From assembly GCA_016840185.1 (NCBI GenBank), contig JAEOSV010000123.1, forward strand, positions 1 to 6,936: 6,936 nt of DNA, read 5' to 3'. The position numbers and the translations under genes are program-made. Shown piece by piece: positions 1-6,936 of this stretch (position 1 is the stretch's first letter; each line of letters starts with the position of its first letter). Below the pieces are notes generated by a model. It did no database searches, had not been told where the DNA came from, and saw only the letters and a program-made list of their open reading frames with translations. This DNA is from Candidatus Hermodarchaeota archaeon. Its GTDB lineage: Archaea > Asgardarchaeota > Hermodarchaeia > Hermodarchaeales > Hermodarchaeaceae.

Positions 1-534
1 ATGCGCAAGATGTCCACCACTCTCGGAAAAGGTGGCGAGACGCATCTGTCCAACCGTGATGTCAACCGAATTGCCAGTCGACCTGAATCCATGGAAACCA
101 TCATCGAACCCGCTTACGACGCCATTGGTGTTGCTGTCGGTGTTTCTGTGCTTCCGGCCGCTATCACCATTGAAGAACGTGAGGCTGAAGATGAAATCAT
201 CTGGCGCGAACTCGAAAAACTCGAAGGCTTGGGTCATGACCAGAAACTCGAACTCTTCGAAGAAATGAAGCGCATCCCTGCCAAGGATCGTGTCTGGTTC
301 CTTGAAGACCTCAAACAACAGATGGCCGACGGCACCCGCTTCGGACGCCTCCCCGCCGAACCCACACCGGTTCCTGAAGGTGTCGATCCCCTCATCCACT
401 CCAGGCTCCAAGCATTAGACGCCTTGGGAATGGAAGAGAAGGAAGCAGTCGTCGAACAACTCCGTGGTCTCTCCAAGGAAGAGCAAGAAGAGGTCATCAA
501 AGCGCTCGAAGAAACCACGCGAAAAAGCGAGTAA
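1..534 (+). CDS. C-terminal cytoplasmic tail of a giant surface protein (5' partial, paralog of the next gene)
   Basis: The frame is open from the first base and ends at TAA (532-534), giving 177 residues. I read it as the end of a larger protein cut by the window edge. Its first residues (MRKMSTTLGKG) align directly to an internal position of the downstream giant protein, just after that protein's transmembrane helix (MRNMSKVLGKG, residue 1866). The match runs without gaps for 116 residues, with about 61 identities by hand count, including EREAEDE, QKLELF, RVWF and QMADGTRF. There is no signal peptide or membrane segment in the visible part. The composition is charged and mostly helical after residue 57. 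Two similar helical units lie at residues 69-107 and 134-172, joined by a proline-rich linker (118-128). There are no N-X-S/T sequons, as expected for a cytoplasmic segment. The family is not one I can name. The alternative, a free-standing 177-residue protein starting at base 1, is less likely because no ribosome binding site is visible and the alignment begins mid-protein. Confidence 0.85.
   Translation: MRKMSTTLGKGGETHLSNRDVNRIASRPESMETIIEPAYDAIGVAVGVSVLPAAITIEEREAEDEIIWRELEKLEGLGHDQKLELFEEMKRIPAKDRVWFLEDLKQQMADGTRFGRLPAEPTPVPEGVDPLIHSRLQALDALGMEEKEAVVEQLRGLSKEEQEEVIKALEETTRKSE
205..516 (+). repeat. Two-copy helical unit in the tail of the first protein
   Basis: Residues 69-107 (bases 205-321) and 134-172 (bases 400-516) can be laid over each other without gaps. 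Both have the pattern L..L..LG...K, then a second helix with hydrophobics at matching spacing, then a charged break (IPAKDR against LSKEEQ), then a final helix ending near L. Identity is only about 7 of 39 residues, so the case rests on colinear hydrophobic periodicity. The same two-unit layout recurs in the tail of the downstream protein. I infer a pair of short helical hairpins that may form one small helical bundle. Confidence 0.5.
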
Positions 535-544
535 CCACTAGTTC

Positions 545-577
545 AAAGGGGACTGCGCTCCCCTTTCAACCCTTTTT
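545..577 (+). terminator. Stem-loop plus T-tract terminator of the first gene
   Basis: AAAGGGGA (545-552) pairs perfectly with TCCCCTTT (559-566) around the six-base loop CTGCGC. Seven bases later comes a run of five T (573-577). It begins ten bases after the stop codon, the expected place for a 3' end. Archaeal termination relies mainly on U-rich tracts and the hairpin is optional. The short T-tract, set off from the stem, makes this a moderate call. Confidence 0.5.
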
Positions 578-670
578 CCGGACTTCTAGAAAGTTCGTTA
601 CAGTTTAAAGAGAGGCTCATACAATACGCCAACTCGCCATCTGGGTGATGTATTTGTCTAGATGGATAAT

Positions 671-690
671 TCAAAAAATACTCTTAAAAT
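671..690 (+). promoter_or_regulatory. Candidate AT-rich promoter region of the giant surface protein gene
   Basis: An A-rich stretch followed by CTTAAAAT sits about 77-96 bases before the TTG start. It could serve as BRE plus TATA box, which would put transcription start near 710-715 and leave a leader of about 55 bases. A leader fits the strong ribosome binding site. The match to the archaeal TATA consensus is poor. TTTAAAG at 604-610 is an alternative that would give a longer leader. Confidence 0.25.
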
Positions 691-754
691 CTCGTTTGAA
701 TGGTAACATGGTTCGGTGATAAGTCGAACTTAGGTTCGCGGGCACTATTGCGGT

Positions 755-760
755 GAGGTG
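755..760 (+). promoter_or_regulatory. Shine-Dalgarno sequence that sets the TTG start
   Basis: GAGGTG matches six bases of GGAGGTGA, the complement of the 16S rRNA 3' end. It ends six bases before TTG at 767. An in-frame GTG lies at 758 but overlaps this motif and would have no ribosome binding site of its own. An in-frame stop (TAG, 731-733) prevents extension further upstream. Confidence 0.8.
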
Positions 761-766
761 TGTTAT

Positions 767-868
767 TTGAAACTGGGTAAACTCGAAGTAGCGGTTGTCA
801 TCACACTCTTTTTCGTCATTATAGCATCACCATCAGGGCTCCCACAACATCCTGTTGCTTCTGCAGCC
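767..868 (+). other. Signal peptide of the giant surface protein
   Basis: Residues 1-34 show two lysines (K2, K5), a hydrophobic core at 8-20 (VAVVITLFFVIIA) and a small-residue stretch ASAA at 31-34 suited to signal peptidase cleavage. The mature chain would begin near P35. An uncleaved membrane anchor is possible but less likely given that stretch. Confidence 0.75.
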
Positions 869-3800
869 CCGAACTCACCATATCAGGGAAATGGAAATGC
901 CATAGATGTTCATGAATTTGCACAGAACATCACAACTTCAATCACAGGTGGGGAAAATGGTACCAGTGTTATCTATGACAGCGATTGGTTCCCAGCAGGG
1001 TATCGTGGTTATCGATTCCAAACAAACGTCTCTGATCTTGTTCGATTTACAGACCCATTGCCGAACGGGTCATTCGAAAATACCACTGCTTTTGGCTCAA
1101 CATGGAATCTAACGAACTCTGACCCCGGTAGCCCCCTCATCGAATCGATAAATCCTGATACTGGTTATTCTCCCACAGATGGCTCGTATGTCATGGATGT
1201 GGCGCTCCCCGATGAGAAACTCAATGGGCAACGAACAGCCTATATCGATAACGATTTTAATTACACTTCGGAAATTTATCCATATTACTCCAAAGTTAGC
1301 TTTGATATCAAATTAGACGATATCACCGACAAAGACTGGTTACTTCTTCGAGTCGCCATCTGGAATCAAGGGATGGAAAAAGGACATTGGCAGTATGACC
1401 TTAAAACCCTTAAAGACGCCATCGGGGAGGATTCGTGGAGCACTGAAGAATTCACTACTAGCCCAATCAATGGGCAAGTTCGACTGCGTATATCTCTTGT
1501 CAAACAAACTTCGAAAAATGAAGATGTTAAAGGGCATATCATTTTTGATAACATCCGCTACGTCATTGGCTCATATGTCAAACCGGAGGAAGCAGGATTA
1601 ACGCTCAATGATGAGCCCTTTGTCGATTCACCTTCAAATCCAGCAGGGAGTGTTGACATCTATTCGGATTCAAGCGCTCGTGAAGAGGTGTCTTGGGCTA
1701 CTTGTTGGACATCTGATCAAACCTTTCAGATTAGTTCATCTCAATTTGACAATCTAACCTTTTCTTATGAATATGCCATGTATGTCAAGCACATTGAGGC
1801 CGGTGGGGCTTCCACCTTCTTTTCAGCTCCAGTTGATGACAGTCCAAACTGGAGGGCAAGCTATTCAGTAAGCACTGGAGCGCCATCTGGACATGAAAGG
1901 TATAGCTTTGGCCTCTTCTTGGTCACCGGTTGGATTCGAACAGAAGTAAACAGCAGCCTAGGGCAATCAATGACACATTCCTATAATGTAACAAGTAATT
2001 TCGTTAAACTCGATGACGGAGGACCAAATGTCGGTGAGACGTATAACGTCTATGCTTCGGCTTCGAACTTTGTTCTTTCAGTTCTGCCACAAAAAAGTTC
2101 CAATCCAATTGGACCTTGGGATAATGTATCTTCTGGCGGCTATTTTGTCAAGGGTGACTTTATACGTGTTCTAGCGCTATTGCATCCCATCGCATTTTCT
2201 GGTGATAATTTTGCGAACGTGTCAATCTTCTTTCCTAACGGGACTTTATGGCAGAGTGCCGAATCCCCCACTGACGTGGTAATTGATGATATAACCGATT
2301 CGTTAACCAGCATATCCTGGCAAATTCCTGATATTAGCGATGCCGATATTGGTCAAAGCTGGACAATCACAGTTTCCTTCGATAACCAAGAACAATGTGG
2401 GATGCAGCAAGCCTTCTTCTCCGTCGTCGTCGGATCCCAAGTCACCAAGCAAACTCCCTCCGATGGAACCCGGGTTATTTGGGGTCAACCCATTCTGGTC
2501 AACGTCACTGCCCAAAATAACTACACCCTAAGCTATATCACGGATGGCACGGCTCAAGTCAGGTATATTGATCGCAATCTCCAAGTTCAATATGTGGCTA
2601 TGGTAGCAAATAATCAGGGTGCCTACTCCACGAATTTAGCAACTACATTAATGACTCCTAATCCAAACGCAGGATTCGCGGTTGAATTCTTCCGACATGG
2701 TTATATGAATGCCAGCTATGACGAAGGCACTGCAATTCATTACACCATAAACCTCGTGAATGATATCACTACTGAAGTGATTAAACCATCACAAATAACA
2801 GGGCCCAATGAATACTCCGCCGAAACCTCCAGTATCCAGGGCTACACAATCCAAGCCAAATTCTATGATCCATACCAATCCGCATACGTACTGAACGAAA
2901 CCTCTTTCTGGCCAACGGTTTTGGTAACCTACGATTATTACGAAGATACTGGATCAGGATTTGGAAGTATTATTTCCTCAGGAAGTTTTAGTCAAAACGT
3001 CTCAACCCGGATTTTTTACAAGCATGACCCGACCTATCTTGAAAGTGTCGATCGCGTCAAATATGAGGTCATAATGCGTGTTGAAGACGCGTCTTGGAAC
3101 TTTGAACAACAAAACTTTACAATTCTTATTACCATCGTCGATTATGCCACAGATCTTGATGCCTTTCAAACGTCCATAGCCTTTCCGCCAATTGGAAATG
3201 GATGGACGACTTTTAATCAGGAATCTGATGACTATGAAGTTCATGTATATTGGAGTGAAACGTTCAATATCACAGTATTTTATGAAAACTCAAGCACACT
3301 CATCGGGATTTCATCTGCGACCGTTCGGGTGCTAGTCGGTGGTTCCACGTATTCCTTGTCAGAGGGTCAACCTGGATATTACACCCGCCTTCTTGATACG
3401 ACATCATTGAATCCAGGCATAACGGTTCTTTATGTCAACGCTTCATATCCTGCTCATGCATATCAAGCCATTCAAATCAGATTAAATATTGAACTTCGTA
3501 GCACCAGCCTTCAACACAACCAAACAGGTCTAACCTTTCAGCTAGCTTGGGGTGAAGAGTTTCCTATCCTCTTTACCTACTCTGATGTCGTCAACGTTGC
3601 TAGCCCACAACCACTTGATAGCGCCACAGTTACTGTCACGGGTTATATAGAATCTCACTACTCTGTACAAAATAATGTAGATGGGACCTATGCCATTACA
3701 TTGTCTGGTGATGTCTCTGAAGACACTTACATTGTGCGATTCAGCTTTAACCAATCAAAATACCAGATACGAAGTATCACCTTTACAATCATTGTTCGTC

Positions 3801-6800
3801 CACGCCACACGCAATCAACCGGTTTCCCCGACACAGTCTCAGTGCCATGGGGTGATGATGTAGTTATCACTCTTCATCTCAATGATACCGATGAAGACTT
3901 CCAAGGAATCCCCGGAGCAACAGTAACCTTTACATGGTTCGACAATATTCTTGGCACTGATTACTGGTTTTCCGATAATGGTGATGGAACCTATACAATC
4001 ACTTTGAATACAACCAAAGTTCCTGCAGGAACACAAGGGTACACCATTCTCTTCCAATTCAACAAAACTCATTACGACTTCTCACAAACCACCGTAATCT
4101 TTCAAGTCCGAGATATTGGAGCCATTCTCTACAACCTAGGAACCCTCGAACCATATGGCGCCTCCGTACCTTGGGGTGACTCACTAACCATTATTCTTCA
4201 GTTCAACAACACAGACCATGGGAATTTCCTCATCCAAGGTGCTACCATCTCATGTAATTGGGATTTCTTCTACTGGGGTGTCACTTATAACACAACCTAC
4301 AATGCATACCTTCTCCGAATCGACACCAGCAGTCGGCCTGAAGGCAGCTATACAATTCAGATCTCTTCAGAACTAATCCATTATCAAAGTGGGACCAATG
4401 TACAAGCTTTTGTACTCCGCACCATTCAAACCACAGGTAACGTAGCGCCCTCCTACATACCAGCTCATCCACTCGGTGATAATCTCACACTCATAATCAC
4501 CTACCAAGATTTAGATCATGGTGGAATACTGATACCGTTTGCTACTCTGACCAACGATTGGAATGCCACATTCTATACGATATACGATTTTAGTAATGGT
4601 ACCTATGTAATCGAATTGAACACAACCTGTCGTGGTCGGGGGTCTCACCAACTACTCATAACCCTGAGCCTACCCCCCCATTATGCACCTATCACCCTGC
4701 CTGTTACACTTATCCTTGAAAGGACTCCCCTCACTGTAACAATAATCGATCCTGCAGGTGCACAAACCAGTGTTGAATATGGAGATTCGGTTCTTCTTAC
4801 AGTTAGTGTCACCAATCACCATGGCTTACCAGTCAGTGACATTGTTACTACATTTCGCTGGGGTGGACATAATCCGGTTACAATGTCTTACCTTGGTGGA
4901 GGCATTTACACCTTCACGTTCCTAGCAAATGAAACACCCAGTAGTTACGTCATCACAATCGAAGCCGCAAATGAGACAAAATACCAACTTGGCTTAGGAA
5001 CCGTTTTGCTTTTCATCCAACCGACTGGGACAGACCTTGATGTTCTAACTCCCTTGGTTATCGCAGTAATTGGTGGTACATTTGAAATATCAGTAAACTT
5101 CACAACAATTCTCGGATCACCTATTGACGGCGCAAATGTGACCTATGCATGGACCAATCAGACAGGCATCCTCATACAGGTTGCTCCAGGCATTTACAAT
5201 GCTACAATTGACACAACCGGGTTCGATAGCGGGCAATACAACATGTACATCAGCGCTAGTAAACCGACCATGCTTGAACAATTCCGTACAATCAACGTAA
5301 TCCTCTCCGTTATTCCAACAGCCCTCCAAACCACGACTCCGGTCTTCAATCTTTATTGGGGCACCCCCTTCGAAGTGAGTATCTACTTCAATGACACCTA
5401 CAACAATCTGCCCATCGATGGAGCAGATATCCAATACAGCTGGGCAAATCAAACCGGGTCTTTATTGCCTACAGGAACACCAGGCTGGTATAACATATCA
5501 TTATCTAGCACACTCTTTACCGCTGGATCCTTTTACACCCTAACTCTAACAGCTGATTATCCCGGGTACCAGTATGCATTAACTTCCAGAACAGTCAACA
5601 TAAATCGGCAACCCACAGGATTAGCCATAACTCAAAGTGAAACCTATTACCCACCGGCAGGGATTACCATTCCTCAAAACGGCACTAGTTGGCGAATCCC
5701 GTGGGGAGACATACTAATCTTATACTTCAATTACACTGACTCAAATGGGCTGAGTATCCCCAATGCGACAGGCGTCTATAATTGGGGATTAGGCACAGGC
5801 AACCTTGAGTATCTGGATGGGTTATACGTAGCCCAGATTGATTTGACGGGGGTTACCCCTGGCCCGTACCAACTCATCATTACCCTAAGTAAACAAAATT
5901 ATGAACGTCAACAATCACCAACTTATGAGCTAACAATAACTAGGTTTGAAACTGAAGTCACAATCCTCGAAGGACCTACAACTGTATCAACCGGCACACC
6001 ATTTACGCTCGCCATCCTGATAACTGACCGATATCACCAGCTTCCTGTTACCAGCGCTAATGTCTCGATTTCAATTCACACATTGGGTCTTACCAATCAA
6101 CCTATGGACAATCACAACGATGGCACCTACTCCATTGTCCTCAGTATTCCTTCTCCGGGTGCCCATGAAATCATCATTCATGTAGAGGTTGATGAACGCT
6201 TCTCACTTACTGAAGAACCCGTTCTGGTTCTTGCCCAGCTGAACCCAATTGTCCAAAATGCCTTTCAGTGGGGTACAATCATTGCCATAATTGGCATCAT
6301 CCTTCTAGCAATATGGTTCGCCTATGTACGCGTCTTCTCCATTCCTTGGATGGTCCGTAAGATGCGAAATATGTCGAAGGTCCTCGGTAAGGGAGACACA
6401 CCCACCTTATCGAAGATGGATCGAACCCGGATTTCAGACCGAACCGAGCTGATGTCGGAAATTGCTGACCCCTACTATGGCGCTGTCGGGATGGCTTCCA
6501 CAACAATTGTGATTCCGGTGGAAGTTGCATGGGCAGAACGGGAAGCTGAAGATGAGGCAATTTGGTCGGAACTCAAAGCCCTTCCCCTCATTGAATATGA
6601 ACAAAAACTTGAACTCTTCCAACAAATGAAGCAAATCGCACCCTCTGAACGTGTTTGGTTCATTGAAGACCTCAGGAAACAGATGGCGGATGGAACCCGG
6701 TTTGCTCGAAAAATCAAGGAACCAGAAGTCAGCGAAGATTTAGAAAATGAACTTCAAGCCCGTTTAGCCACATTTCCTGCCCTAAGTGATACTGAAAAGG

Positions 6801-6936
6801 TGCGCATCGCCGCCCAACTGCGGAAGATGCCCAAGGAAGATTGGGATGAAATCTTCCATACCCTTGCCATTGCAGAGACTCCTGCAACCGTAACCGTTGA
6901 GGATGAGCTAGGTCCTGATGAATTTCCATCACTTAC
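767..6936 (+). CDS. Giant single-pass surface protein with jelly-roll and tandem Ig-like domains (3' partial)
   Basis: One frame stays open for 2056 codons and runs off the right edge. The start is TTG at 767, fixed by the ribosome binding site and by a signal peptide directly after it; the first in-frame ATG is only at codon 143. Order of parts: signal peptide (1-34); galactose-binding-like jelly-roll domain (about 99-268); beta-rich region of unclear family (about 269-795), including a possible diverged Ig-like unit around WGQP at 572; ten Ig-like units (796-1824); transmembrane helix (about 1835-1855); basic juxtamembrane segment (RKMRNMSK); cytoplasmic tail (1866 to the edge). Residues before the helix contain 46 N-X-S/T sequons by my count and only four cysteines, as expected for a glycosylated archaeal surface protein. 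The tail is shared with the protein upstream. I infer an adhesin, receptor or cell-envelope protein. No catalytic motif was seen, so ligand and partner are unknown. Confidence 0.9.
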   Translation, partial: MKLGKLEVAVVITLFFVIIASPSGLPQHPVASAAPNSPYQGNGNAIDVHEFAQNITTSITGGENGTSVIYDSDWFPAGYRGYRFQTNVSDLVRFTDPLPNGSFENTTAFGSTWNLTNSDPGSPLIESINPDTGYSPTDGSYVMDVALPDEKLNGQRTAYIDNDFNYTSEIYPYYSKVSFDIKLDDITDKDWLLLRVAIWNQGMEKGHWQYDLKTLKDAIGEDSWSTEEFTTSPINGQVRLRISLVKQTSKNEDVKGHIIFDNIRYVIGSYVKPEEAGLTLNDEPFVDSPSNPAGSVDIYSDSSAREEVSWATCWTSDQTFQISSSQFDNLTFSYEYAMYVKHIEAGGASTFFSAPVDDSPNWRASYSVSTGAPSGHERYSFGLFLVTGWIRTEVNSSLGQSMTHSYNVTSNFVKLDDGGPNVGETYNVYASASNFVLSVLPQKSSNPIGPWDNVSSGGYFVKGDFIRVLALLHPIAFSGDNFANVSIFFPNGTLWQSAESPTDVVIDDITDSLTSISWQIPDISDADIGQSWTITVSFDNQEQCGMQQAFFSVVVGSQVTKQTPSDGTRVIWGQPILVNVTAQNNYTLSYITDGTAQVRYIDRNLQVQYVAMVANNQGAYSTNLATTLMTPNPNAGFAVEFFRHGYMNASYDEGTAIHYTINLVNDITTEVIKPSQITGPNEYSAETSSIQGYTIQAKFYDPYQSAYVLNETSFWPTVLVTYDYYEDTGSGFGSIISSGSFSQNVSTRIFYKHDPTYLESVDRVKYEVIMRVEDASWNFEQQNFTILITIVDYATDLDAFQTSIAFPPIGNGWTTFNQESDDYEVHVYWSETFNITVFYENSSTLIGISSATVRVLVGGSTYSLSEGQPGYYTRLLDTTSLNPGITVLYVNASYPAHAYQAIQIRLNIELRSTSLQHNQTGLTFQLAWGEEFPILFTYSDVVNVASPQPLDSATVTVTGYIESHYSVQNNVDGTYAITLSGDVSEDTYIVRFSFNQSKYQIRSITFTIIVRPRHTQSTGFPDTVSVPWGDDVVITLHLNDTDEDFQGIPGATVTFTWFDNILGTDYWFSDNGDGTYTITLNTTKVPAGTQGYTILFQFNKTHYDFSQTTVIFQVRDIGAILYNLGTLEPYGASVPWGDSLTIILQFNNTDHGNFLIQGATISCNWDFFYWGVTYNTTYNAYLLRIDTSSRPEGSYTIQISSELIHYQSGTNVQAFVLRTIQTTGNVAPSYIPAHPLGDNLTLIITYQDLDHGGILIPFATLTNDWNATFYTIYDFSNGTYVIELNTTCRGRGSHQLLITLSLPPHYAPITLPVTLILERTPLTVTIIDPAGAQTSVEYGDSVLLTVSVTNHHGLPVSDIVTTFRWGGHNPVTMSYLGGGIYTFTFLANETPSSYVITIEAANETKYQLGLGTVLLFIQPTGTDLDVLTPLVIAVIGGTFEISVNFTTILGSPIDGANVTYAWTNQTGILIQVAPGIYNATIDTTGFDSGQYNMYISASKPTMLEQFRTINVILSVIPTALQTTTPVFNLYWGTPFEVSIYFNDTYNNLPIDGADIQYSWANQTGSLLPTGTPGWYNISLSSTLFTAGSFYTLTLTADYPGYQYALTSRTVNINRQPTGLAITQSETYYPPAGITIPQNGTSWRIPWGDILILYFNYTDSNGLSIPNATGVYNWGLGTGNLEYLDGLYVAQIDLTGVTPGPYQLIITLSKQNYERQQSPTYELTITRFETEVTILEGPTTVSTGTPFTLAILITDRYHQLPVTSANVSISIHTLGLTNQPMDNHNDGTYSIVLSIPSPGAHEIIIHVEVDERFSLTEEPVLVLAQLNPIVQNAFQWGTIIAIIGIILLAIWFAYVRVFSIPWMVRKMRNMSKVLGKGDTPTLSKMDRTRISDRTELMSEIADPYYGAVGMASTTIVIPVEVAWAEREAEDEAIWSELKALPLIEYEQKLELFQQMKQIAPSERVWFIEDLRKQMADGTRFARKIKEPEVSEDLENELQARLATFPALSDTEKVRIAAQLRKMPKEDWDEIFHTLAIAETPATVTVEDELGPDEFPSL
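1061..1570 (+). other. Galactose-binding-like jelly-roll domain
   Basis: Residues 99-268 begin with NGSFE followed by a tryptophan and end with IIFDNIRYVIG. This opening and closing pair is typical of carbohydrate-binding-module-like jelly-roll domains: the N.SFE....W start, and a late strand with FDNI. Between them lie alternating beta strands such as YSKVSFDIKL and WLLLRVAIW. The family is known for glycan or surface binding, but no specific ligand can be inferred here. It sits at the outer, membrane-distal end of the protein. Confidence 0.55.
1571..3151 (+). other. Beta-rich ectodomain region of unassigned family
   Basis: Residues 269-795 are rich in alternating hydrophobic and polar residues and in N-X-S/T sequons, with no helical or membrane segment. 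The part near residues 470-565 (GGYFVKGDFIRV to FFSVVVGS) reads like an Ig-like sandwich. The following part contains VIWGQPILVNVT at 570-581, which resembles the WGD opening of the units in the later array, but its downstream half fits poorly. I do not recognise a defined family for residues 269-470. Confidence 0.4.
3152..6238 (+). repeat. Array of ten tandem Ig-like units, about 100 residues each
   Basis: Each unit has the same order of marks: an opening WGD-type turn followed by a beta strand, then I.GA.V...W, then GDGTY.I.L.T, then G.Y.I.I and an aromatic near the end. The opening motif lies at W829 (WSE), W928 (WGE), W1028 (WGD), W1136 (WGD), L1236 (LGD), Y1338 (YGD), I1435 (IGG), W1531 (WGT), W1646 (WGD) and T1742 (TGT). 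Spacings are 96-115 residues. Approximate unit bounds in bases: 3152-3499, 3500-3805, 3806-4117, 4118-4426, 4427-4720, 4721-5020, 5021-5308, 5309-5611, 5612-5944 and 5945-6238. The fold is probably an Ig-like beta sandwich acting as a rigid stalk or adhesive surface. Units are divergent at DNA level, so the array is old, except that units 7 and 8 look closer to each other. Confidence 0.75.
6269..6331 (+). other. C-terminal transmembrane helix
   Basis: Residues 1835-1855 (starting WGTIIAIIGIILLAIWFAY) form an uninterrupted hydrophobic stretch. It is followed by basic residues (R1857, then RKMR), so the positive-inside rule places the C-terminal side in the cytoplasm. Sequons agree: 46 before the helix and one after it. 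Confidence 0.9.
6362..6936 (+). other. Conserved cytoplasmic tail shared with the upstream paralog
   Basis: From residue 1866 to the window edge (191 residues) the tail matches the first gene product from its first visible residue. The first part (about 1866-1920) has short beta-like stretches such as TTIVIPVEV. It is followed by EREAEDE and a helical region with two similar units at residues 1934-1972 and 1998-2036 (bases 6566-6682 and 6758-6874). After the second unit the upstream protein stops within a few residues, whereas this one continues with an acidic stretch (TVEDELGPDEF) and is still open. From memory, the layout resembles tails I associate with Thorarchaeal surface proteins; this is unverified. 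Confidence 0.75.

What the first reader, a model, noticed from the sequence alone, without database searches (positions are those of the whole stretch)
1..6936. Tandem giant surface proteins sharing one cytoplasmic tail
The 177-residue product at the left edge aligns without gaps over 116 residues to the tail after the membrane helix of the 2056+ residue protein. Conserved blocks are EREAEDE, QKLELF, RVWF.EDL and QMADGTRF. In surface proteins the ectodomain usually diverges fastest, so a tail kept this similar in two neighbours suggests a common cytoplasmic partner such as a scaffold, cytoskeletal or signalling protein. This could be an undescribed archaeal adhesion or sensing system.
Basis: partly seen in the sequence, partly recalled or inferred. 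Interest (0 to 1): 0.7.

Follow-up and report, generated by a model that had tools for sequence, protein, structure and literature searches.

The report
Paired giant Asgard surface proteins, shared tail
Two neighbouring genes of an Asgard archaeon encode giant cell-surface rods that end inside the cell in the same unusual helical tail, which fits a shared internal docking point in close relatives of eukaryotes.

Summary
The left ORF (1-534) is the C-terminal tail of a giant cut by the window edge: in Hermodarchaeota relatives the same frame runs upstream through a membrane helix into Ig-like ectodomain. The right ORF (758-6934, open 3') has a signal peptide, a CBM4-like jelly-roll, ten Ig-like modules, one membrane helix and the related tail (46% over 169 aa). 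The tail is a basic juxtamembrane segment plus two or three homologous three-helix beads, with no clear Pfam family. All organism names among its relatives are Asgard.

Thorarchaeota keep an overlapping tandem pair of ~2,600-aa members. Class a and b tails match each other better than Thor tails, although class a shares its distal ectodomain with Thorarchaeota. This favours a lineage-specific partner; whole-gene duplication explains part of it, and bead 2 is poorly kept between classes. No partner gene lies beside Hermod or Thor giants. In other Asgard genomes type I surface proteins, some with a related juxtamembrane segment, lie directly upstream of a ~370-aa family ("X"), once fused to it: a candidate partner, unproven for the window.

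Tandem giants in two Thorarchaeota MAGs were reported in 2022; the passages I read do not mention the tail.

The parts
1..534 (+). C-terminal cytoplasmic tail of an upstream giant surface protein (class a), cut by the window edge
181..342 (+). three-helix bead 1 of the left tail (aa ~61-114)
   Evidence: alignment to the modelled tail
373..525 (+). three-helix bead 2 of the left tail (aa ~125-175)
535..757 (+). 223-base gap between the two giants; a run of five T at 573-577, seen by eye only
758..6934 (+). giant type I surface protein (class b), 2059 codons, open at the 3' window edge
758..832 (+). signal-peptide-like N-terminus (hydrophobic aa 4-25)
1046..1570 (+). CBM4-like jelly-roll domain (aa 97-271)
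3206..6235 (+). ten tandem Ig-like modules of ~100 aa (aa 817-1826)
   Evidence: profile built from modules chosen by eye in this same protein; Pfam Invasin_D3
6257..6346 (+). single membrane helix (aa 1834-1863)
6347..6412 (+). basic juxtamembrane helix, about SIPWMVRKMR..S..LGKG (aa 1864-1885)
6542..6703 (+). three-helix bead 1 (aa 1929-1982), best conserved part
6731..6877 (+). three-helix bead 2 (aa ~1992-2040)
6914..6934 (+). start of a third bead, cut by the window edge (complete in L002)

Best explanation
The window holds two neighbouring paralogues of an Asgard family of giant type I membrane proteins. Outside, the right-hand one has a carbohydrate-binding-module-like domain near its N-terminus on a rod of about ten Ig-like modules, so it probably binds glycans or a partner surface. 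One membrane helix leads to a basic juxtamembrane helix and a string of two or three small three-helix beads in the cytoplasm. I infer that juxtamembrane segment and beads are a docking platform, tuned within each lineage to one shared cytoplasmic partner or to each other, so that differently tipped rods report to or are anchored by the same inner structure. Shown by computation: anatomy, paralogy, tandem conservation, bead homology, closer match of tails within Hermodarchaeota than to Thor. Inferred: ligand binding, docking, common partner.
For: Architecture. Beads homologous to each other (hhalign bead 1-2 E 2e-9, bead 2-3 E 2e-10). Membrane helix before the tail in 128 of 128 giants. Class a (15) against class b (32) tail: 480 of 480 pairs, median 47%, 195 bits, while their first 620 aa give a median of 39 bits in 251 of 480 pairs; class a against Thor D (30 of 67 used) tail: 411 of 450 pairs, 24%, 42 bits, while their first 620 aa give 450 of 450 pairs, 32%, 241 bits. 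In two Thor U-D comparisons bead 1 is 46-48% identical, ectodomain bins 26-40%. Overlapping genes in 9 of 9 Thor pair loci examined.
Against: Whole-gene duplication alone gives like tails. Between Hermod classes only membrane helix, juxtamembrane segment and bead 1 stay close; bead 2 is 22-37% identical to the window's. In the Thor pair the membrane helix (29%) and juxtamembrane part (33-35%) are no better kept than the ectodomain. The tail model has low pTM (0.32), so bead packing is unknown. No partner gene sits beside Hermod or Thor giants. Global alignments between the lineages are near the shuffled level. The CBM-like segment does not match the Thor profiles (E 0.42, 0.45) and hardly class a (E 0.0025), so that domain is not shown to be family-wide; its jelly-roll also matches proteins that are not sugar-binding modules.
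Confidence: 0.5

Rival explanations
1. The shared tail is only the trace of tandem whole-gene duplication. The tail anchors the rod in the membrane and keeps its sequence for folding reasons; there is no common partner.
For: Thor U and D are 32% identical over the full ~2650 aa in three genomes. Hermod class a and b are also alike in the last Ig modules, not only in the tail (34-44% over aa 1561-1830), and bead 2 is not well kept between them (22-37%).
Against: A mere anchor needs no 150-residue bead array. Class a and b tails stayed at 47% while their first 620 aa fell to 39 bits, yet across the Hermod-Thor distance class a kept 241 bits in its first 620 aa and only 42 in the tail.
Confidence: 0.25
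2. The giants are a structural coat. Overlapping pairs are made in fixed ratio and form the cell envelope in archaea that lack an ordered S-layer; the tails hold the coat together or to the cortex.
For: Thor D members keep a uniform length: 67 of the 79 relatives P0048-P0126 exceed 2540 aa, and their ectodomain segments are 41-56% identical in median. Overlapping genes suggest coupled translation. Lokiarchaeum lacks an ordered S-layer (PMC9834061, passages). 46 N-glycosylation sequons against 21.7 in shuffles of the ectodomain.
Against: No lattice or expression data. The CBM-like domain suggests binding. Genomes of the Thor block show up to 11 tail matches, in open frames of very different size.
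Confidence: 0.3
3. The giants belong to aloposon-type mobile elements, like Otus and Ephialtes of Heimdallarchaeum.
For: Wu et al. 2022 report tandem giants in two Thorarchaeota MAGs with distant homology to aloposon giants (PMC8813620, passages).
Against: No tRNA gene in any of 19 loci of relatives. The Thor pair is next to a gene of the same cluster (tRNA synthetase by Pfam in the one scanned) in 9 of 9 loci; Hermod giants lie among metabolic genes shared between loci.
Confidence: 0.05
4. The left ORF is a separate small soluble protein starting at base 1.
For: ATG at base 1.
Against: The homologous frame continues upstream through a membrane helix and ectodomain in L001, L002, L003 and L004.
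Confidence: 0.01

Closest known systems
Aloposon giants Otus/Ephialtes and the tandem Thorarchaeota giants (Wu et al. 2022, PMC8813620)
   Same: tandem giant genes in Asgard archaea; the Thor pair seen here may be the one they mention
   Different: Hermod and Thor loci here are syntenic with housekeeping-type genes and show no tRNA gene nearby; the 128 relatives found are 1,413-3,981 aa; the tail is not mentioned in the passages I read
Invasin/Big-type Ig-rod adhesins (Pfam PF09134, PF16640)
   Same: long rod of Ig-like modules; Invasin_D3 above its cut-off, Big_3_5 below
   Different: held by a C-terminal membrane helix with a large cytoplasmic tail; no intimin/invasin barrel among the Pfam hits
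CBM4-type carbohydrate-binding modules
Protein A type three-helix bundles
   Different: only a common arrangement; Foldseek gives no match at E 0.001 or better; beads are predicted to be cytoplasmic

Membership tests
Asgard giant surface proteins with bead tail (family defined here) | membrane helix directly before juxtamembrane motif and bead tail | tested here: met
   window aa 1834-2059; 128 of 128 giant relatives
Asgard giant surface proteins with bead tail (family defined here) | left window ORF also preceded by membrane helix and ectodomain | tested here: met
   in relatives L001-L004; cannot be read in the window itself
Aloposon giants | integration at a tRNA gene downstream of the giants | tested here: inconclusive
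   0 tRNA genes in 19 loci of relatives; the window's own flanks are not available
Aloposon giants | four genes upstream of the giants, including a MinD/ParA-like ATPase | tested here: inconclusive
   ten neighbour proteins scanned, none MinD/ParA; not every flank gene scanned
Aloposon giants | sequence kinship to Otus/Ephialtes | not tested
   their sequences were not fetched
Invasin/intimin adhesins | Invasin_D3/Big-type Ig modules | tested here: met
   PF09134 37.2 bits, cut-off 33
Invasin/intimin adhesins | N-terminal outer-membrane barrel | tested here: not met
   no such Pfam hit; aa 97-271 modelled as a jelly-roll
CBM4-like carbohydrate-binding module | jelly-roll fold | tested here: met
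CBM4-like carbohydrate-binding module | glycan binding | not testable with these tools
   needs a binding assay
S-layer protein | forms an ordered lattice | not testable with these tools
   needs imaging

The most novel reading that the evidence does not exclude
Asgard archaea carry a general surface-to-cytoplasm system: variable sugar- or partner-binding giant rods share one juxtamembrane/tail code that is read by a dedicated cytosolic protein. In many Asgard genomes that protein is family X (~370 aa, weak winged-helix matches), encoded directly downstream of type I surface proteins and once fused behind the membrane helix, in several loci followed by a TrmB-like regulator. In Hermod and Thor archaea X is encoded elsewhere and may serve several giants at once, as an outside-in signalling route in close relatives of eukaryotes.
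Probability: 0.25. Interest if true: 0.85.

Novelty: new variant of a known kind. Interest (0 to 1): 0.62.

Why it matters
Cryo-tomography of a cultured Asgard archaeon shows complex surface proteins and no ordered S-layer (PMC9834061, passages). In my searches I saw no account of which proteins these are or how they connect to the inside. A family of giant rods with a common cytoplasmic tail, a conserved overlapping pair in Thorarchaeota, and a co-encoded cytosolic protein family in other lineages gives named candidates. The question of how Asgard surfaces talk to the cell interior becomes testable by binding and imaging experiments.

Tried and rejected
Rejected or not supported: a stand-alone left protein. 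A soluble tail family: of 46 short hits 24 still carry a membrane helix, with 16 to 326 residues before it, and 22 start inside the helix or tail or at most about 42 residues before the match, as truncated pieces would; several are labelled partial. I did not check where each lies on its contig, so a rare short form (for example P0170, 115 aa on a 26-kb contig) is not excluded. A known tail domain: among 45 tails scanned the lowest Pfam E is 0.00051 (DUF3106, 2 members); BET is most frequent (4 members) and below its cut-off in the first member; cut-offs were shown only for that member. The left ORF has YqbF_HeH at E 0.0035, below cut-off. No NCBIfam match for four proteins, no PDB sequence relative (best E 0.35), no PDB fold at Foldseek E 0.001 or better. 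A dedicated partner beside Hermod or Thor giants: the flank proteins scanned are nitroreductase, CoA ligase, enoyl-CoA hydratase, AP_endonuc_2, tRNA synthetase, LPG_synthase_TM, UbiA, PHP and DUF362 types and one 180-aa protein without a family; family X gives no hit at E 10 in 25 giant-bearing loci; T gives only weak matches in 4 of 5 Hermod and Thor genomes. RNA families in the window: none at the gathering threshold. Whole-length global identity to show the ectodomain/tail contrast: too close to the shuffled level, so I rely on BLAST bits. The first two literature searches, with optional terms, returned mostly unrelated papers.

Of the 60 tails, 44 went into alignment A2 together with the window's; 16 were left out (mostly the longer, more distant Thor tails, two cut and one masked). 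The pair count of 18 genomes is my reading of the list. Start codons are mechanical. The X sample was picked by eye at about every third row of the list (sorted by E, best first), passing over rows already fetched or near one taken, with one row added to fill the call: 40 loci of about 150 listed rows. The looser rule was set after I had seen the strict result. On checking I lowered two odds: the mechanism (0.55 to 0.5), because the weak bead 2 identity had been left out, and the novel case (0.3 to 0.25), because only 15 of 43 X-linked upstream ORFs match the tail profile.
Full report
OBSERVATION. The window (6936 bases; no genome is held for it) has two large + strand ORFs: 1-534, open at the 5' edge, and 758-6934, open at the 3' edge. 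The left product and the tail of the right one share 46% identity over 169 aa (143 bits). The first 121 residues align without a gap with 63 identities; the next best ungapped placement gives 18. This is not chance. No Rfam family reaches its gathering score in the window.

SOURCE AND LEFT EDGE. A scan of species genomes gave five confirmed loci, all Hermodarchaeota MAGs by record title (phylum within the Promethearchaeati). In L001, L002, L003 and L004 the relative of the left ORF (82-83% identical in the first two, 54% in the others) runs upstream in frame through a membrane helix into an ectodomain that BLAST aligns to the window giant. In all four a further giant follows, complete in L002 and cut or broken off in L001, L003 and L004. 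So the left ORF is the tail of a truncated giant.

HOW WIDE. With the Hermod-only profile 89 of 227 Asgard genomes match; with a 45-row profile 131 of 227. Protein searches with the window tail gave 47 relatives of 1413-2322 aa and with a Thor tail 81 of 1422-3981 aa; the length filter favours such sizes. All organism names shown in the three searches belong to Asgard groups; most hits have none. All 128 giants have a membrane helix before the tail. Of 46 short hits 24 retain the helix and 22 start inside helix or tail or shortly before.

TANDEM PAIRS. 44 of these 47 genomes have a tail match, and in at least 18 two tails lie 7.66-7.89 kb apart on one contig (my reading of the list). In 9 of 9 pair loci examined (L061-L068, L072) the second giant's first start overlaps the first one's stop, by 4 bases in six and 1 base in three. 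GGAGG precedes the start in all nine, but the same bases largely encode a Gly-Gly that is common at this tail end, so a ribosome-binding role is not shown. In all nine a gene of one cluster lies next to the pair; the one scanned is a class I tRNA synthetase, W/Y type. In three genomes U and D are 32% identical over the full length, while orthologues are 64-70% identical over most of theirs. In the tail tree U (13 rows) and b (5) are each one clade with strong support, D (8) and a (7) with moderate support (79/99 and 93/80). Labels were by gene position for most rows and by look for four U/D rows. Hermod and Thor tails are parted by a 100/100 branch, with a warning about long branches. Hermod giants sit among metabolic genes shared between loci. 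No tRNA gene in 19 loci.

CONSERVATION. In class b (32 proteins, 496 pairs) median identity is 74% in bead 1, 70% in bead 2 and 68% in the juxtamembrane segment, 47% in the membrane helix, 44% between juxtamembrane and bead 1, and 37-54% in ectodomain segments. In Thor D (67 proteins, 400 sampled pairs) the two bead segments are 65-70%, membrane and juxtamembrane segments 47-53%, ectodomain segments 41-56%. Against the window, class a (15 proteins) is 55-65% identical in membrane helix plus juxtamembrane, 56-61% in bead 1, only 22-37% in bead 2, 34-44% in the last Ig modules and 17-25% in the distal half. BLAST contrast, using the first 620 aa and the last 260-300 aa: distal part a against b 251 of 480 pairs at E below 1e-3, median 39 bits; a against Thor D (30 of 67) 450 of 450, median 32% over 545 aa, 241 bits. 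Tail a against b 480 of 480, 47%, 195 bits; a against D 411 of 450, 24%, 42 bits. Profile comparison of the N-terminal parts agrees (a against D E 9e-95, a against U 9e-64, a against b 3e-20, b against D 5e-6). So tails follow the lineage while class a shares its distal part with Thor. Fast change of class b's distal part, gene conversion of tails, or co-evolution with a lineage-specific partner could each produce this. Global alignments between the lineages lie near the shuffled level and do not help; in two U-D comparisons bead 1 is 46-48%, the rest of the tail 36-47%, membrane helix 29%, juxtamembrane 33-35%, ectodomain bins 26-40%.

FAMILY X, A LEAD. In several other Asgard genomes mainly the membrane and juxtamembrane part of the tail profile matches, again in tandem rows. 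In L091, L092 and L109 such rows are followed by a ~375-aa protein (X) and a ~640-aa protein (T; TrmB by Pfam in the two scanned). One genome (G083) has a 4963-aa giant with juxtamembrane and bead matches, followed after 18 bases by a weak X relative. An 18-row X profile matches 162 of 227 genomes at E 1e-10. All 131 tail-positive genomes are X-positive, against 31 of 96 tail-negative ones (counted); this is confounded by kinship. In a sample of 40 loci with 43 X ORFs, the directly upstream same-strand ORF is a strict type I surface ORF in 24 of 43 (one has no upstream neighbour in view), against 1 of 188 control ORFs; 15 of the 43 upstream ORFs match the tail profile at E 0.01. By a looser rule, set afterwards, it is 31 of 34 outside L142-L149 and 0 of 8 in L142-L149 (one Hermod-like and seven Thor-block loci), control 14 of 152. 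In G122 one 2087-aa ORF contains a signal-like start, a membrane helix near aa 1611, a basic stretch that the tail profile does not match, and X at aa 1725-2083, which puts X on the inner side. X has weak winged-helix Pfam matches in a few members (one HTH_5 at 7e-8) and no convincing PDB relative. In Hermod and Thor genomes X stands elsewhere, among other genes, and is absent from the 25 giant-bearing loci. X as the partner of the window's tails is therefore a hypothesis.

PRIOR ART. Wu et al. 2022 (PMC8813620; [quoted passage not shown] PMC9834061 (passages) and PMC12993045 (passages) report no ordered S-layer, or no S-layer, but complex surface structures in Lokiarchaeum. PMC11573180 (passages) counts about 23 huge Asgard proteins. 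PMC8163825 (passages) on Hermodarchaeota gave no occurrence of Ig-like, giant or adhesion terms. Searches with Asgard, Thorarchaeota or Hermodarchaeota and surface terms showed no description of this tail in the listings and passages I saw; no paper was read in full.

VERDICT. Observation confirmed and widened. The interpretation of a common cytoplasmic partner is plausible, strengthened by the lineage-matched tails and by the X arrangement elsewhere, but not shown for the window.

Noticed in passing
L091:11595-14679, L092:5858-8968, L109:15432-18497: Surface-protein rows followed by family X (~375 aa, no clear Pfam family) and a ~640-aa protein, TrmB-like by Pfam in the two scanned; looks like a surface-sensing operon.
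   Followed up: partly
L103:3821-19899: Three consecutive surface-protein/X units in a row; the X start overlaps the preceding stop by a base in each.
   Followed up: partly
L097:8817-15080 (-): One 2087-aa ORF joins a surface protein, membrane helix and X domain (aa 1725-2083).
   Followed up: yes
L110:8913-16872: X, a 1625-aa surface protein, two GTPase-like proteins and a short longin-like protein in a row; GTPase and longin labels are from sequence appearance, not from a search.
   Followed up: no
L095:6876-10318, L100:6916-10465, L143, L144, L147, L148: In Thor-block genomes X lies near a ~557-675-aa protein with a longin-like start (label recalled, not searched), a repeated pairing.
   Followed up: no
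L093:3210-10945, L094:8886-14830: In two Hermod genomes X lies two genes after a row of small (~330-400 aa) proteins with hydrophobic ends like signal peptide and membrane anchor.
   Followed up: no
L084:1504-1812: Bead-like segment inside a protein with a 793-aa open frame of genome G114; unclear architecture.
   Followed up: partly
P0166: 193-aa protein on a 797-base contig with a receiver-like N-terminus (by look) before tail beads; possible fusion or assembly error.
   Followed up: no
L060:2614-19899 (-) in G070: Giant of over 5700 aa (open frame 7129 aa) with the same tail.
   Followed up: no
L048:98-1369: Thor-type tail of about 424 aa with what look by eye like four or more bead repeats, so bead number varies.
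   Followed up: no
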